DNA from: Myxococcus fulvus
Lineage (GTDB): Bacteria > Myxococcota > Myxococcia > Myxococcales > Myxococcaceae
NCBI RefSeq assembly: GCF_900111765.1
Contig: NZ_FOIB01000001.1
Span: forward strand, 1,674,001 to 1,738,000
DNA length: 64,000 nt
Reading direction: 5' to 3'
This document shows, one piece after another, positions 27,001 through 51,390 of the stretch. Under the pieces are notes generated by a model. That model was not told where the DNA came from. It did no database searches and worked only from the letters and a program-made list of their open reading frames with translations. Position numbers and translations under genes: made by a program. Each line of letters begins with the position of its first letter. Positions within the stretch are counted from its first letter, which is position 1.

Positions 27001-30000
27001 ACATGGAGGCCGCGCTGGGGGAGCTTCGCCAGGCGGTGCGCTTCGAGCCGGGGCACAAGGAGGCGTGGCTCCTGCTCGTGGAGCGGTTGTGGGCGCGTGG
27101 CAACCAGGGCGAGGCGGCCTGGGCGCTGGAGCATGCGGCCACCGCGACGGAGGACGAACTCGAGCGCGAGCAGACGTGGGACCGGTTGGCGCGTTTGTGG
27201 CGCGAGTCGCTCGGCAATGCGGAGCGGGCGCAGGTCTATGCGCGGCGCGCGGAAGGGTTGAGGCTGGCGCGTGAGGAGCGGGAAGCGGCGCTGCCGCCGC
27301 CCGAGCCGCCTCGCAGCGCGACGCCTCGTCGCGAGTCCAGTGGGCCGAGGTCTCCCTTGGCTCCCTCTCCGGCGAAGTCGACGGCGCTCGTGGCGGCGGG
27401 CGGAGACCTGTCCGAGGAGATCACCTCGAGCTCCGACCCCAATGTCCCTGCGGGACCGGGGGGCGTCGAGGCGACGAGCACCGCGCCTCTTCGCGGTGAC
27501 AGGGCGACGGGTCCATCGGCGAGTGGTGTGTCTGGGGCCTCCGCTTCGCGCGCCGAGCCGCATGCGGGCGCACAGGGTCTGCGAGGAGAGAGGTCCGCAC
27601 TTCCCCCGGGGGCGAGCAGCCCGAGTGCCAGGGAGGAGAAGGGCGCACCAGGCAATGTCGCGACGCCGTCGAGTGCGAACAGCCCGGGCCCGCGAGCTGG
27701 GAAGGCCGCGCCGCCCGCCGACGCTTCATCTCCGCGCACGGAGCGGGCTCCTCCGGCCACCAGCGCGCCTCGTACGGAGAAAGCTCCTTCATCCGCGGGT
27801 GCCGCGCCCAGCAACGCGCCTCGTGCGGAGAAGCCCGTTGCGTCCGCGGAAGTCGCGCCCGGCAACGCCTCGGCTCCTCGTGCGGAGAGGGCTCTTCCAC
27901 CCAGCAGTGGTGTGCCCGCCAGCGCGTCTCGTACGGAGAAGGGTTCAGCACCCGGCAATGCATCTCGCCCGGAGAAGCCTGTTCCCTCCGCGGGTGCAGT
28001 ACCCGGCGGAGCGCCTCGCAATGAGAGGTCCGTTCCATCTACAGGCGCCGCGCCCGGCAATGCATCGCGCGCGGAGAAGCCCGCGTCCTCAGCAGGTTCC
28101 GCACCCGGTAATGCATCGCGCGCGGAGAAGCCCGCTGCGTCTACGGGGGCCGTACCCGGCAACGCACCTCGCACGGAGAATCCTGCTGCGTCTACGGGAG
28201 CCGTACCTGGTAACGCATCCCGCGCGGAGAAGCCTGCTGCATCCGCAGGTGCATCAGCCGGCAATGCACCTCGTCCGGAGAAGCCTGCTGCGTCAGTAGA
28301 TGCAGCACCCGGCAACGCAGCTCGTGCGGAGAAGCCTGCTGCGTCCGCAGGCGCAGCACCCGGTAATGCATCTCGCGCGGACAAGCCTGCTGCGTCCGCA
28401 GGTGCAGTACCGGGTAATGCATCTCGCGCGGAAAGGCCTGCTGCGTTCGCGGGTGCAGCAGCCGGCAATGCACCTCGCGCGGAGAAGCCGGCCGCGTCCG
28501 CAGGTGCAGCACCCGGCAACGCACCTCGCACGGAGAAGCCCGCGCCCGCCGTCCTCGACGCGCCCGGCAACGCATCTCGCGGAGAGAACCCCGCGCCCCG
28601 CGCAGTGAAGCCCGCGCCCCCCGGCGCACGCACCGAGAAGCCCTCGCCCCCAGTCCTCGCTCGCGTGGACAAGCCCGCGCACCGTGAGGACAGTCTCGCC
28701 GCGCTCGGTCCGGAGCTGGAGCGTCCCGCTCCCTCGGGCTCCACGGTCGTCTTCGGCGAGAACGCCCCCGCGCCTCGCGCGGACCCACCGCCCCGCGCCC
28801 CCCGAGGCGAGAAGCCGCGTCCTCCGAGCCCCGCGCGTCCCCCGGAGCCCCAGCCGCGAGGTGGCAAGGCCATCGACCTCATGACCGGCGGCGCCATGGA
28901 CCTCGACGCCCCGGCCGTGCCGGAGACACGCATCATCTCCTGGGAAGCCCCGCCGGGCCGCATGGACCCCGTGCGTCGCGTCCACCGCCCCAACCGCCCC
29001 GAGGGCACCGCCGCCGGCCCCGCGCCGGGCCGCACCTTCATCGCGAAGCCCCCCCCGCCCGCCGCCCCGCTCGTCGGCGCCGCCGAGACGCGCGAGAACC
29101 CCATCGTCGTCCCCGTGCCCGCCCCCGCCTCGGACACCGAGCCCGAGGTCTTCCGCCAGCTCCGCGAGCGCCCGCTCGACACCGCCACCTACGAGCAGCT
29201 CGCCGACTTCTTCGACACCCGAGGCGACGCCCCGCGCGCCGTCCTCATGCGCGAAATCGTCGAGGCCCTCGCCGGTCGCGAAACGCCCGCGCCCCGCCTC
29301 CAGCGCCCACCCCTCACCGGCGACGAGCGCGCGGGCCTGCGCCACCCGGGCCTGCGCACCACCTCGGGCGAGCTGCTCGCCTGCGCCGGTATCGCCCTGT
29401 GCCGCCTGTTCCCCGCACAGGGGCGCGCCGCGGACGCCTCCGAGCCCCTGCGCGCCGTCGCCGGTCCCGGCGCGCCCGCCGTCCTCGACGCGCTCCACAC
29501 CTCCGCGCGCATCCTCGCGATGAACCTGCCGGAGCTCGTGCTCGCCGACGACGACGGCCCGCCCTTCACCGCTGTCCACACCGACAAGCCGCGTCTGCTC
29601 GTGGGCCGCGCCGCCATCCGCCAGCCCCTGCCCGCCGCGGAGCTGCGCTTCCACGCCGGCCGCGCCCTCCTGTCCCTCTCCCCGGACCTGCTCGCCCTGC
29701 GCGCGCTCAAGGGCGCCCAGCTCCTGCGCGCCCTCGCCCTGCTCTCCACCGTCCTCAAGGACCCCAAGGACTCCAGCGCCGACGCGCGGCTCGTGCGCGA
29801 CTCGCTGTCCCCGCGCGCCCTGGAGCGCACCCTGGAGCTGCTCGAGCCCGGCACCCGCGACTTCAACGCCTCCGCCCTCGCGGACGCCGCGCGCGACTCC
29901 GCCAACCGCGCGGGCCTGGTGGCCTGCGGCGGCGTGGGCCCCGCCGTCACGGTGATTCGCTCCCGCCGCTCCCAGGACTCGGAGCTGGTGGAGCTGCTGC

Positions 30001-33830: not shown

Positions 33831-34460
33831 ATGAAGGTCTATGGCCATCCGCTGAGCACCTGTACTCGCACGGTCCTCGCCACGCTGGCGGAGAAGGGGC
33901 ATGAGGCGGAGCTCGTGCTCGTCGACCTGACGAAGGGCGAGCACAAGTCGCCGGCGCATTTCGCGCGGCATCCGTTCGGCGTCATCCCGTCGTTCGAGGA
34001 CGATGACGGCTTCGTGCTCTACGAGTCGCGCGCCATCATCCGCTACCTGGACCGTCAGCTGTCGGGCCCGTCGCTCACGCCCGCGGCGCCGAAGGCCTAC
34101 GGGTTGATGGAGCAGTACCTCAGCGTGGAGCAGTGCTACTTCTCGCCCGCGGCCTTCAAGGTGTCGTGGGAGCGGCTCTTCAAGCCGCACATGGGCGGCG
34201 GCCCGGTGGACGAGGCCCGCGTGGTGGAGGGGCGTCAGGGCGTGGCGAAGGTGTTCGCCATCCTCGACCCGGTGCTGGCGAAGCAGCCGTTCCTCGCGGG
34301 TGACAGCTTCTCGCTCGCGGAGGTGGCGTGGCTGCCGCATCTGACGTTCTTCCTCACCTTCGACGAGGAGAAGGCCCTGCTGGCCGAGCACAAGCACGTG
34401 GCCGCATGGTGGGAGCGCATCAGTGGCCGCCCCGCGTGGCGCAAGGTGACCGGCGCGTAG
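33831..34460 (+). CDS. Glutathione S-transferase family protein
   Basis: 209 residues from ATG 33831, with GGAGG seven bases upstream. The thioredoxin-like N-domain starts KVYGHPLSTCTRTVLATLAE, with a Ser/Thr-Cys catalytic region of the phi/theta type, then the cis-Pro in PFGVIPSFED and the ESRAIIRYLD glutathione-binding segment. The C-terminal helical domain contains AGDSFSLAEVAWLPHL and ends WWERISGRPAWRKV. The bases encoding its last residues resemble the 70-bp repeat units that follow immediately. Confidence 0.9.
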   Translation: MKVYGHPLSTCTRTVLATLAEKGHEAELVLVDLTKGEHKSPAHFARHPFGVIPSFEDDDGFVLYESRAIIRYLDRQLSGPSLTPAAPKAYGLMEQYLSVEQCYFSPAAFKVSWERLFKPHMGGGPVDEARVVEGRQGVAKVFAILDPVLAKQPFLAGDSFSLAEVAWLPHLTFFLTFDEEKALLAEHKHVAAWWERISGRPAWRKVTGA

Positions 34461-34766
34461 CGAGCGGCCTCGGTGGGCGTGCTCGCACGTGAGCGCGGCC
34501 CCGTGTGCCTCGCGCGGTGAGGTGCCGCGCGCGGCTCTGCATCGATCTCCACCACCGTGGACGGATGCGCGTCGCGCCAGGTGCCTCGCGCGTGGTGGTG
34601 GGGCGTTGGCGGGAGACCGCCACCTCGTGGACGGATGCGCGTCGCGCCAGGTGCCTCGCGCGTGGTGGTGGGGCGTTGGCGGGAGACCGCCACCTCGCGC
34701 GGGCGAGGTCCCACGCTCGACACGAGCATCGTGCTGGGCGTGGTGTTGATGGGAGACCACGACCTC
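34461..34766. repeat. 70-bp tandem repeat array after GST
   Basis: Units 34557-34626 and 34627-34696 are identical 70-base copies. A degenerate third copy of exactly 70 bases follows (34697-34766, ending GGGAGACCACGACCTC versus GGGAGACCGCCACCTC). A degenerate copy precedes them from about 34480, sharing GTGCCTCGCGCG. Within each perfect unit, 25 bases (34571-34595 and 34641-34665) match the last 25 bases of the GST gene at 19 positions. The rest of the gap to the GNAT stop codon holds no gene. Confidence 0.85.
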
Positions 34767-34780
34767 TCGGGTTCAGCCTG

Positions 34781-35452
34781 CTACGCACCCGAGGTGCGCT
34801 GGGCGACCTCGGAGTCATCTCGGGGCGCCTCGTCCGCGGGCGCGGGACGCCACATGAACCACTGCGGCGGGCCGCCGTCGAAGCAGGGCTCGGTGCGCTG
34901 CAGGTCGAAGCCGAAGCCCTGGTACCAGTCGCGATTGGAGGCCTTGGCCGTCTCCAGGAAGCACGGGGCGCGGGTCTCCTCCGCCAGCGCCAGCCCCGCG
35001 CGCATCAGCCGCGCGCCCACGCCCTTGCCCTGGTGCGCCGGGTCCACGGCGATGGTGGCCAGGTACCAGTGGGGCGGCGTGTGCGGGTGGTATCGCTCCA
35101 GCCTCGCCAGCGCCTGGAGGGCCAGCCGCGCGCGTCGCGGGAAGAACCGCAGTCCGGCCCAGACCGTGGGCAGGAAGACGGCCTGCCGCCCGAGTGACTG
35201 GGGGAAGCCGCCCGGCCTCAACCACGCCGCCACGCCCGTGAGCTGCCCGTCCTCGACGGTGGCATGCACCACGCCGTGCGCGAGGCAGTCCTCCACGGTA
35301 GCCCGATAGAACTCGGCTGACACCCGCGCCCGGCGCTCGGAGGGCCCGGGGAAGAGCTCCGCGAGGAACGGGTAGTCATCGAAGGCGCGCGCGCACATCG
35401 GGCCCACCTGTCCCAACAGCTCCGGCCTCAGGCTCTCGATGCTCACGCTCAT
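34781..35452 (-). CDS. GNAT-family N-acetyltransferase
   Basis: 223 residues. Motif A reads LATIAVDPAHQGKGVGARLM (acetyl-CoA pyrophosphate loop, Q-x-x-G-x-G/A), followed by the motif B region CFLETAKASNRDWYQGFGF. The substrate is unknown. The start is ATG 35452 with a TACAGT box 9 bases upstream and no ribosome site. It converges on the GST gene across the 70-bp repeat array and diverges from the propeller kinase. Confidence 0.88.
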   Translation of the reverse strand: MSVSIESLRPELLGQVGPMCARAFDDYPFLAELFPGPSERRARVSAEFYRATVEDCLAHGVVHATVEDGQLTGVAAWLRPGGFPQSLGRQAVFLPTVWAGLRFFPRRARLALQALARLERYHPHTPPHWYLATIAVDPAHQGKGVGARLMRAGLALAEETRAPCFLETAKASNRDWYQGFGFDLQRTEPCFDGGPPQWFMWRPAPADEAPRDDSEVAQRTSGA

Positions 35453-44400: not shown

Positions 44401-47400
44401 GCTGGGAGGAGTTCGAGCGCCAGTTGGAGGAAGCGCACGAGCGGGTCCACGCGCTGAAGGCGGCGTTGGATGAGGAGACCGCGCTTCGCCAGGAGACCGA
44501 ACGACAGGCCCAGGAGGCCCGCGAGCTGAGCGAGTCCCTGCGCACCATCCTGGACCGCGAAGCCGCGCTGCGCGTGGAGGCGGAGGCCGCGCGAGACCGA
44601 CAGACGGAGCAGCTCCAGTCGCTCCAGACGCGGCTCGAGGTCCTCGAGGAGGAGCACTCCCGGGACGCGACGTTGCTGGCGGAGGTGGACCAGCAGTTCC
44701 AGGAAGCCCGAGCGAGAGAAGACGAGAACGCGGCGGCGCTCGCGCGGGAGGAGCGTGCGCGGAGAGAACTCGAGGCCGAGCTGGAGATGGCTCGCCAGCG
44801 TGAGTCCGAGCAGGGCGTGCGCAGTGGCTCGGAGGTGGAGACCCTGCGCACGGAGCTCGCGAAGCTCCAGGCGCGACTGGTGGAGGCGGAGGCGCTCGCG
44901 GAAGCCGAGACGCGCGCACGGGCCTCCGTGGACGAGGCCGCGAAGGCGACGCTCGGACGCATCGAGTCGCGAGAGCAGGACTTCGTCGAGCTGCGCGCGT
45001 TGTTGGAGACCTCGACGTCGGAGGCGCGCGAGCAGGCGAAGCAGTCGGCCGAGGCCCTGTCGCGCGCGGAGGCGGAGGTCCGCGAGGCGCTCATCGCGCG
45101 GGACGATGCGCAGGAGCGCGCCGACCGTGAGTCGCTCGACCGAGCGGAGACGCAGGCCCGGCTCGCGGAGCTGGAGGCGAAGCTCGCGGAGTCTGAAACG
45201 CGAGAGGCCGCGTCGGCGCAGGCGATGAGGGAGATCGAGCTCCGCATCGAGGACGAGGCCGCGGGTCGGGTCGACGCGGAGGTGCGAGCCGAGGCGGAGG
45301 TCCGCGCGAGGCAGGCGCTCGAAGCGCGAGTGAAGGCCGCGGAAGTGGCGCTCGTCGAAGCGGAGGCGAGGGCGGGCGCGGAGGCCCTGGCCCGTGCGGA
45401 GGCAGAGGCCCGAGCGGAAGCGGCGGACGCGGCCCGGCTCGAATCGGATTCTCGAGCGAGGGCGGAGTCGCGAGCTCGCGCGGAAGCGGAAGCCCAGGCG
45501 GAGCTGGAGTCGCGGGCGCGGAGCGAAGCCGAGGCGCGAGCGGAGGCGGAGACCAAGGCACGCGAGGAGGCGGAGGCTCGCGCCAGGGCCGAGGTCCAGG
45601 CGCTCACCCAACTGGAGACCCAGGCCTCGTCCGAGGCGCGGGAGCGCTTCGCGCAGGAGGCCCAGGCGCGCGAGGAGGCGGAAGCCCGAGCAGAGGCCCA
45701 GGAGCAAGCTCTCGCCGAGGCCGAAGCGAAGGCCGAGGCCGAGACGAAGCTTCGTGAAGAGGCCGAAGCCAGAGCCGAGGCGGAAGCCAAGGCGCGAGAG
45801 GAAGCCGAGGCGCGAGCGGAGTTCGAGGAGAAGCAGCGCGAGGAAGCCGCCGCACGCGCCGAGTCCGAGGCGAAGCTCCGCGAACAGGCGGAAGCGAGAG
45901 CCGAGTCCGAAGCGAAGCAGCGCAAGGACCTCGAGGCCCGAGCGAAGGCCGAGGAGAAGCAGCGCAAGGAACTCGAAGCGCGCGCGAAGACCGAGGAGAA
46001 GCAGCGCAAGGAACTCGAAGCGCGCGCGAAGGCCGAGGAGAAACAGCGCAAGGAACTCGAAGCCCGAGTGAAGGCCGAGGAAGCACAGCGCAAGGAACTC
46101 GAAGCCCGAACAAAGGCCGAGGAAGCACAGCGCAAGGAACTCGAAGCCCGAGTGAAGGCCGAGGAAGCACAGCGCAAGGAGCTCGAGGCCCGAGCGAAGG
46201 CCGAGGAATCACAGCGCAAGGAACTCGAGGCCCGAGCGAAGGTCGAGGAATCACAGCGCAAGGAGGCCGAGGCCCGCGCGGAGATAGAGGAGTCGCAGCG
46301 CAAGGACGCGGAGGCGCGAGCCGAGTCCGAAGCGAAGCAGCGCCAGGACGCCGAAGCGCGAGCGGAAGCCGAGGCAAGACAGCGCGCGGAACTCGAGGCC
46401 CGAATCGAAGCCGAGGTGAAGCGGCGAGAGGACGCCGAAGCCGAGGCCGCGTTCGAGGTGGAGCTGCGCGAGGAGGCCGAGGCCCGTATCGAAGCCGAGG
46501 CGAAGCATCGCGAGCAAACCGAAGCCGAGACGAAGCAGGCCCAGGCGCTCGCCGAGTCGGAGGCCCGTCTGCGCGCCGAAGCCGAGGCCCGGGCGGACAC
46601 GGACGCGAAGCAGCGAGTCGTCGCGGAGACGCGCGCGGAAGCAGAAGCCCGGCAGCGAGCGGAGGCGGACGCGCGAGCCGCCGCCGAGGCCGAGGTCCGC
46701 GCGGACGCCGAGGCCCGCGCCCGAAAGGCGGAGCAGGCCCTGGTCGACGCGGAAGCGCGAGCCAAGACAGAAGGCCGTCACCGCACCGCCCTGGAAGTGC
46801 GCCTGGAGGCGGAAGCCCGTCAGCGCGCCGCCGTGGAGACGCGCATCGAGGAGCAGGCCCAGGCGTTGAGCGCGGCCGAGGCCCGCTCCGCCCAGCTCCA
46901 GGGGCAGCTCGAGCAGACGGACGCGGAGCTCGCCCGACTGCGCACGGATCACGAGGAGGCCCGCGCGGCCCTGGAGTCGCTGCGCGAGGAGAAGGCCCGC
47001 CTGGAGAAGGACTCCGCGGAGGAGCGCGCCCGCGCCGAGCGGGAGCGCCTGGAACTCGAGGAGCGGGGACGTCGCGAGGCCGAGGAGGCCGCCGCGCAGG
47101 CCAGAGCGGCGCTGCTCCCCCTGGAGGCACCTCCGGGACGTCCGGAGCTCGCGGTGTCACGCAGCGGCAGTGTCACGCAGGAAGGTCTCGCCCGACTGGT
47201 GCTCCGGCTCTGCGAGGCGCGCATGGAGGTGCGCCTGGAGCTGAAGGTGATGAACGCGCTGCGCGTGCTGTGGCTGCGAGATGGCCTGCTCGTGGGCGCC
47301 GTCTCGTCGGCTCCTGGTGAGTCGCTCATCGACCGCGCCCGAGCGGATGGCCTCATCGACGCGCGGCAGGAAGGCGAGCTGCGGCTGGTGCGCAGCGCCA

Positions 47401-49553: not shown

Positions 49554-50579
<1,026 letters not shown>

Positions 50580-51390
50580 CGCGGGAGCGCCACGCCCGGA
50601 GGCGCGAGATGAACCGTGGAGGGCGACACCGCGGAATGCATCCGCCACGGGCATCGACAAGCGCATGGCGCGTGTGCGTCGCGCGCTGAAGTAGCGTGGG
50701 ATCGCCGCGCCCGGCGGCGCGAGATGAACCGTGGAGGGCGACACCTTCGAACGTGTTCGCCACGGGCATCGACAAGCGCATGGCGCGAGCGCACGCCACG
50801 CGCTGAAGTGGAGCGTGAGTGGTGCGCCCGGAGGCGCGAGATGAACCGTGGAGGGCGACACCTCGGAACGCACCCGCCACGGGCATCGAGGCACGGCCAT
50901 GGCGCGAGCGCACGTCACGCGCTGAAGTGGAGCGTGAGTGGTGCGCCCGGCGGCACGAGACGAACCGCGGAGGGCGACAGCTCGGAACGCATCCGCCACG
51001 GGCCTCGATTGGGTCATGGCGCGGGCGCACGTCGCGCGCTGAAGTGGAGCATGAGGGGTGCGATCGGCGGTGCGAGATGAACCGTGGAGGGTGACACCAC
51101 GAACTCGTCCGCCACGGGCATTGAGACACGGCCATGGCGCGAGCGCACGTCGCGCGCTGAAGTAGAACGTGAATGGTGCGCCCGGAGGCGCGAGATGAAC
51201 CGCGGAGGGCGACACCTCGAACTCGTCCGCCACGGGCATCGAGTCAAGGTCATGGCGTGCGTGCGTCGCACGCTGAAGTATCGCGTGAGCGCCTGGCAGC
51301 ACGAGATGTGCCGTGAGGGTGACACCGCGGAGCACGTCCGCCACCGGCATCGACAAGGCGATTGCCTACGTCCACCGCGCGCCGAGATCA
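50580..51390. repeat. ~117-bp tandem array derived from the ltaE 3' end
   Basis: Seven units of 115-119 bases. The anchor CTGAAGT recurs at 50571 (in ltaE), 50686, 50803, 50922, 51039, 51157 and 51273, with a decayed copy near 51381. The 51 bases 50644-50694 match the last 51 bases of ltaE (50529-50579) at 42 positions, including the terminal codons and TAG. Each unit also has a conserved core GAGATGAACCGTGGAGGG, a short GCGCC-N4-GGCGC hairpin, and CCGTGG/CCACGG inverted repeats about 25 bases apart. Later copies lose the ltaE frame, so the array is non-coding. Confidence 0.9.

What the first reader, a model, noticed from the sequence alone, without database searches (positions are those of the whole stretch)
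34436..34766. A second array, 70-bp units, also resembling the 3' end of the gene before it
Seen: two identical 70-base units, a third degenerate unit of exactly 70 bases, and a decayed leading copy fill the gap after the GST gene. A 25-base block in each perfect unit matches the last 25 bases of GST at 19 positions, and GGGAG and GTGG upstream of it are also shared. Together with the ltaE array this suggests one process that copies gene tails into the downstream gap. Two identical neighbours indicate recent activity.
Basis: partly seen in the sequence, partly recalled or inferred. Interest (0 to 1): 0.7.

Follow-up and report, generated by a model that had tools for sequence, protein, structure and literature searches.

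The report
Young two-copy repeat between convergent genes
A 70-base stretch of spacer DNA between two bacterial genes was recently doubled; it is an ordinary local tandem repeat, probably grown from the spacer itself rather than copied from the end of the neighbouring gene.

Summary
Two identical 70-bp units (34556-34625, 34626-34695) lie between a GST gene and a convergent GNAT gene, with a decayed copy on each side. The 19/25 match to the GST 3' end is exact and rare: its 22/28 core is reached by 0 of 2000 shuffles and 1 of 1166 other gene tails.

The proposed origin is not the best one here. In the nearest relative (G058) the same gap holds a single element collinear with the unit. The tail-like block scores 28 against that gap and 27 against the GST tail, while G058's own GST tail does not resemble its gap. 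Gap length rises from five outgroups to G058 to this genome. The full unit occurs nowhere else in the genome. I read it as lineage-specific tandem duplication of spacer DNA.

The wider idea has support elsewhere: gene tails recur in their own downstream gaps in 14 of 339 cases against 0.45 expected, ltaE being clear. Ordinary tandem duplication, tolerated at 3' ends, suffices; stop-codon-overlapping repeats are published for Yersinia pestis.

The parts
33831..34460 (+). glutathione S-transferase gene (GST_N, GST_C)
   Evidence: Pfam PF02798 7.9e-16, PF00043 2.6e-13; matches at E<=1e-60 in 48 of 96 family genomes
34433..34458 (+). GST tail stretch resembling the unit (21 of 26 positions, local score 27)
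34490..34529 (+). decayed leading copy (40-nt core), orthologous to the G058 gap
   Evidence: 29/40 to the units; own leading gap aligns with the G058 gap, 0 of 1000 shuffles
34556..34625 (+). perfect 70-bp unit 1
34626..34695 (+). perfect 70-bp unit 2, identical to unit 1; collinear with the single element in G058
34568..34593 (+). GST-tail-like block in unit 1 (repeated at 34638-34663)
   Evidence: score 27 vs GST tail, 28 vs orthologous G058 gap
34696..34765 (+). degenerate trailing copy, recognisable in its last ~27 bases
   Evidence: 30/70 ungapped; gapped score 45, 3 of 1000 shuffles
34781..35452 (-). convergent GNAT acetyltransferase gene
   Evidence: PF00583 2.5e-11
50525..51359 (+). 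the comparison array: 116-119-bp units beginning inside the ltaE 3' end and carrying its last codons

Best explanation
A spacer element of roughly 50-70 bp between two convergent genes was tandemly duplicated in this lineage after it split from its nearest sampled relative, by ordinary local duplication (replication slippage or unequal recombination). An older round left a decayed leading copy and probably a decayed trailing one; the last round left two identical units. The spacer is tolerant because it has no promoter of either neighbour and no reading frame to break. Shown: the copies, the single collinear element in G058, the longer gap here, the absence of the full unit elsewhere. Inferred: the direction (gain), slippage or recombination as the step, and neutrality. 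The likeness to the GST tail is then a coincidence or, less likely, a trace of a much older tail duplication.
For: Orthologous G058 gap: the GST stop and the GNAT end both align, own gap 144 bp longer, about two units. Unit vs G058 gap score 77, null maximum 67 of 1000; still 0 of 1000 after removing the right-hand anchor. Distance from GST stop to a conserved GNAT motif: 119, 126, 130, 137, 137 bp in five outgroups with the same neighbour, 246 in G058, 390 here, which favours gain. Full unit at one place in the own genome; 6 of 27 genus genomes, own included, give a match at E<=0.001, the other five only partial ones. Gap arrays are common: 20 of 325 orthologous gaps hold one in own or G058, 9 own only, 5 G058 only, 6 both; convergent 6/38, co-directional 13/203, divergent 1/84 (convergent vs divergent Fisher p 0.0037).
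Against: The GST-tail match is rare for chance: 0 of 2000 shuffles, 1 of 1166 other tails. The left half of the block (CGCGTCGCGCCAG) fits the tail better than the leading copy (by eye). Testing only the leading 95 bp against the unit with gapped scoring is not significant (103 of 1000); the support there is the ungapped 29/40. One close relative only, so gain in own versus loss in G058 rests on five more distant outgroups. Draft assembly: copy number 2 is unverified.
Confidence: 0.75

Rival explanations
1. The array began as a tandem duplication of the GST 3' end (as at ltaE), since decayed; the two identical units are a later amplification of that decayed copy.
For: 22/28 to the GST tail, 0 of 2000 shuffles, 1 of 1166 other tails; tails recur in own gaps at 14 of 339 vs 0.45 expected; several clear cases exist (ltaE, C1:1481165, 1016623, 1429257).
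Against: G058 GST tail vs its gap is at chance (768 of 1000); the block is at least as similar to the G058 gap (28 vs 27); the stop codon is not included; in the score range 26-29 the own-genome excess is only 5 observed vs about 2.2 expected.
Confidence: 0.17
2. The unit is a functional hairpin or terminator element amplified for transcription termination between convergent genes.
For: Position between convergent genes; 50 bases of the unit fold to -24.5 kcal/mol.
Against: The fold is no better than shuffles (z -0.55; 55 of 200 fold as well); no terminator-like site found; no Rfam match in the window.
Confidence: 0.05
3. Assembly artefact duplicating one unit.
For: 42-contig draft; the two units are identical.
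Against: Decayed copies on both sides point to a real older array; many comparable arrays in the same genome and in G058.
Confidence: 0.03

Closest known systems
Intergenic VNTRs/minisatellites, including the stop-codon-overlapping VNTRs of Yersinia pestis (PMC3689786, passages seen)
   Same: Tandem units in a gap or across a gene 3' end; that paper lists 10 VNTRs over stop codons against 6 over start codons and argues less effect at the 3' end
   Different: Here a 70-bp unit with two exact copies; variation seen between species, not tested among strains; the GST array does not itself cross the stop codon
rnc-fpg1 tandem repeats of the Mycobacterium tuberculosis complex (PMC2734929, passages seen)
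   Same: Short spacer in outgroups, long repeat-filled spacer in one lineage
   Different: Those repeats lie upstream of fpg1 and were linked to its expression; here both neighbours end at the array
MIRUs of mycobacteria (recalled; described in passages of PMC2734929)
   Same: 40-100 bp intergenic units, some in tandem
   Different: MIRUs are scattered over many loci; the 70-mer was found at one
ltaE array in the same window (50525-51359)
   Same: Lineage-specific tandem array downstream of a gene
   Different: Its units clearly include the last codons and stop of ltaE

Membership tests
Intergenic tandem repeat (minisatellite) | Head-to-tail copies of a unit above ~10 bp | tested here: met
   2 exact 70-bp copies plus decayed flanking copies
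VNTR | Copy number differs among strains | tested here: inconclusive
   Differs between species (own vs G058, +144 bp); no other strain of this species was available
MIRU-like dispersed repeat family | Same unit at many loci | tested here: not met
   One full match in own genome; next best 35 bp at E 0.0013, chance level by calibration
Gene-tail tandem array (ltaE type) | Unit carries the gene's last codons and stop | tested here: not met
   Similarity limited to 26 bp ending before the stop; block equally similar to G058 gap
Intrinsic terminator | Stable hairpin followed by a T run | tested here: not met
   0 sites; fold z -0.55
CRISPR array | Repeats separated by unique spacers | tested here: not met
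   Units abut with no spacer

The most novel reading that the evidence does not exclude
In this genus tandem duplication may be focused on gene 3' ends, copying stop codons and tails into the gap again and again, sometimes independently in sister species (C1:1481073 and its G058 orthologue use different unit boundaries), by an error-prone step, since ltaE copies differ by 11-29% while neutral divergence from the nearest species is about 10%. The GST array would be a decayed product of it.
Probability: 0.15. Interest if true: 0.55.

Novelty: new member of a known kind. Interest (0 to 1): 0.25.

Why it matters
By itself little: it is a young spacer repeat, possibly useful as a strain marker. The survey it prompted is more useful: tail-gap direct repeats are far above expectation, gene-start repeats much less so, and arrays are commonest between convergent genes. 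That separates a supposed gene-tail copying mechanism from plain duplication plus selection, and gives places (ltaE, C1:1481165, C1:1429257) where a 3'-end bias could be tested.

Tried and rejected
A dispersed element family: own-genome and genus searches gave only partial matches besides the array. The best foreign match, 76% over 71-75 bp in G063 and G068, lies antisense within an open reading frame; shuffled units would give a best hit this good with P about 0.04 over 300 Mb, and the reverse search of the own genome found only the array itself plus one weak partial hit, so I treat it as chance. The L002 match (40.1 bits) has P about 0.13 in a genome this size. Rfam: no match in the window. 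tRNA: none near. Hairpin/terminator: no better than shuffles. An exact 30-mer from the unit was not found in the species collection, which may leave out the own genome. Literature searches for gene-tail or gap arrays and for tandem repeats in Myxococcus or Myxococcales gave the two papers cited and no description of this array; most subscription papers are not in that library. PMC11069108 (passages seen) concerns short simple repeats in M. xanthus, not such arrays.

Weak points of my own work: genes were called with a home-made codon-score caller, so gene starts, and hence the gene-start control, are less certain than stops. The array threshold was set after seeing the shuffles. ownB and G058 are orthologous, so their counts are not independent. 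One search listed minus-strand loci in the wrong orientation and was redone. In one search the G058 stretch I folded covers only part of its element, so I draw nothing from it. Several tail matches in the 26-35 score range look like GC-rich or low-complexity matches; the clear tail cases are few.

Full report
WHAT IS THERE. The gap between a GST gene (33831-34460, +) and a GNAT gene (34781-35452, -), both confirmed by Pfam, is 320 bp. It holds two identical 70-bp units, 34556-34625 and 34626-34695. A 40-nt core of a decayed copy lies before them (34490-34529, 29/40, spacing 76), significant against 2000 shuffles and 451 real gap starts (0 reach it). After them, 34696-34765 keeps the last ~27 bases of a unit in register; 30/70 overall, gapped score reached by 3 of 1000 shuffles.

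THE GST-TAIL MATCH. The 19/25 match is exact. The best 28-base stretch has 22 matches; 0 of 2000 tail shuffles and 1 of 1166 other real gene tails reach 22. With local scoring the GST tail scores 27 against its gap, equalled or exceeded by 0.46% of tail-gap pairs drawn from different genes; among 29 GST loci scored the own one is highest, 27 against 12-23 for the other 28. So it is not comfortably inside the random range, and I do not dismiss it on that ground.

WHY I STILL PREFER A SPACER ORIGIN. Of 96 family genomes, 48 have a GST match at E<=1e-60; loci came back for only part of them, and I read the downstream gap in 29 loci, own included (one partial locus, L055, was left out). The nearest, G058, has 92% GST protein identity. 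Its gap starts and ends with sequence orthologous to ours, is 144 bp shorter, and carries one element: GTGCCTCGCGCG, then a GGTGGTGG stretch, then CCGCCACCTCG. The unit is collinear with it (score 77; null maximum 67 in 1000), also after removing the right-hand anchor (0 of 1000). The tail-like block of the unit scores 28 against this G058 gap, 27 against the GST tail and 24 against the own leading gap. The G058 GST tail against the G058 gap is at chance (768 of 1000). If the block were a tail copy, its right half would have to have been in the gap before the two species split and to have lost its likeness to the tail in G058. Five outgroups with the same GNAT neighbour have 119-137 bp from the GST stop to a fixed GNAT motif, G058 246, this genome 390, which favours stepwise growth.

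AGE. Four-fold sites differ by 10.1% between this genome and G058 (426 genes). Two copies made at the split would be expected to differ at about seven of 70 sites; they differ at none, so the last duplication, or a homogenisation, is recent (inference).

THE WIDER CLAIM. In 1.2 Mb of the own genome, 19 gap arrays with periods of 25 bp or more were found. Own tails against own downstream gaps, 339 genes: score 30 or more in 14, expected 0.45 from permuted gaps; reverse-complement control 0. Controls at the same threshold: gene starts against upstream gaps 4 of 490 (expected 0.65), gap blocks against the following gap 12 of 151 (0.05), coding against following coding 6 of 615 (1.76). Over four sets (own 400 kb and 800 kb, G058 800 kb, G059 400 kb) tails gave 4/131, 10/208, 9/216 and 2/108, starts 2/168, 2/322, 0/320 and 0/160. 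So tail copies are real, duplications are densest inside gaps, and gene starts are largely spared. Between own and G058, 325 of 358 gaps could be paired; 20 have an array in at least one: convergent 6/38, co-directional 13/203, divergent 1/84. In one search convergent gaps again lead, but co-directional and divergent do not differ: convergent 12 of 155, co-directional 11 of 675, divergent 6 of 290, sets partly orthologous. All this is roughly what ordinary tandem duplication gives when copies at 3' ends are harmless and copies at 5' ends are not, the same argument as made for Yersinia pestis VNTRs (PMC3689786, passages).

CLEAR TAIL CASES. ltaE (window 49554-50579): units of 116-119 bp start inside the gene and repeat its last codons; 1 of 27 genus genomes has this array, G058's gap being short and free of repeats. 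Own C1:1481073-1481297 repeats a gene tail with its stop, and G058 has a repeat of the same tail with different boundaries, so the two events look independent. Own C1:1428895-1429256 repeats the junction of two adjoining genes about four times; G058 has one.

VERDICT. Observation confirmed; interpretation partly supported; a new member of a known kind, low to moderate interest.

Noticed in passing
window 50525-51359: ltaE array copies differ from each other by 11-29% although only this genome of 27 in the genus has the array and 4-fold divergence from G058 is 10.1%. The copies look older than their distribution allows, or diverge unusually fast.
   Followed up: partly
G000:C1:1428895-1429256 (outside the window): A 122-bp unit spanning the end of one gene and the start of the next is repeated in exact 122-bp steps here and single in G058.
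   Followed up: partly
G000:C1:1481073-1481297 and its G058 orthologue (outside the window): The same gene tail, stop included, is duplicated in both species with different unit boundaries.
   Followed up: partly
window 27757-28620 and 45144-46720: Long repeats of 51 bp and of 18-126 bp, period mostly a multiple of three; not examined further.
   Followed up: no
G000:C1:1003033-1003595 (outside the window): 75-bp array of about four copies; G058's gap is 372 bp shorter and shows no array.
   Followed up: no
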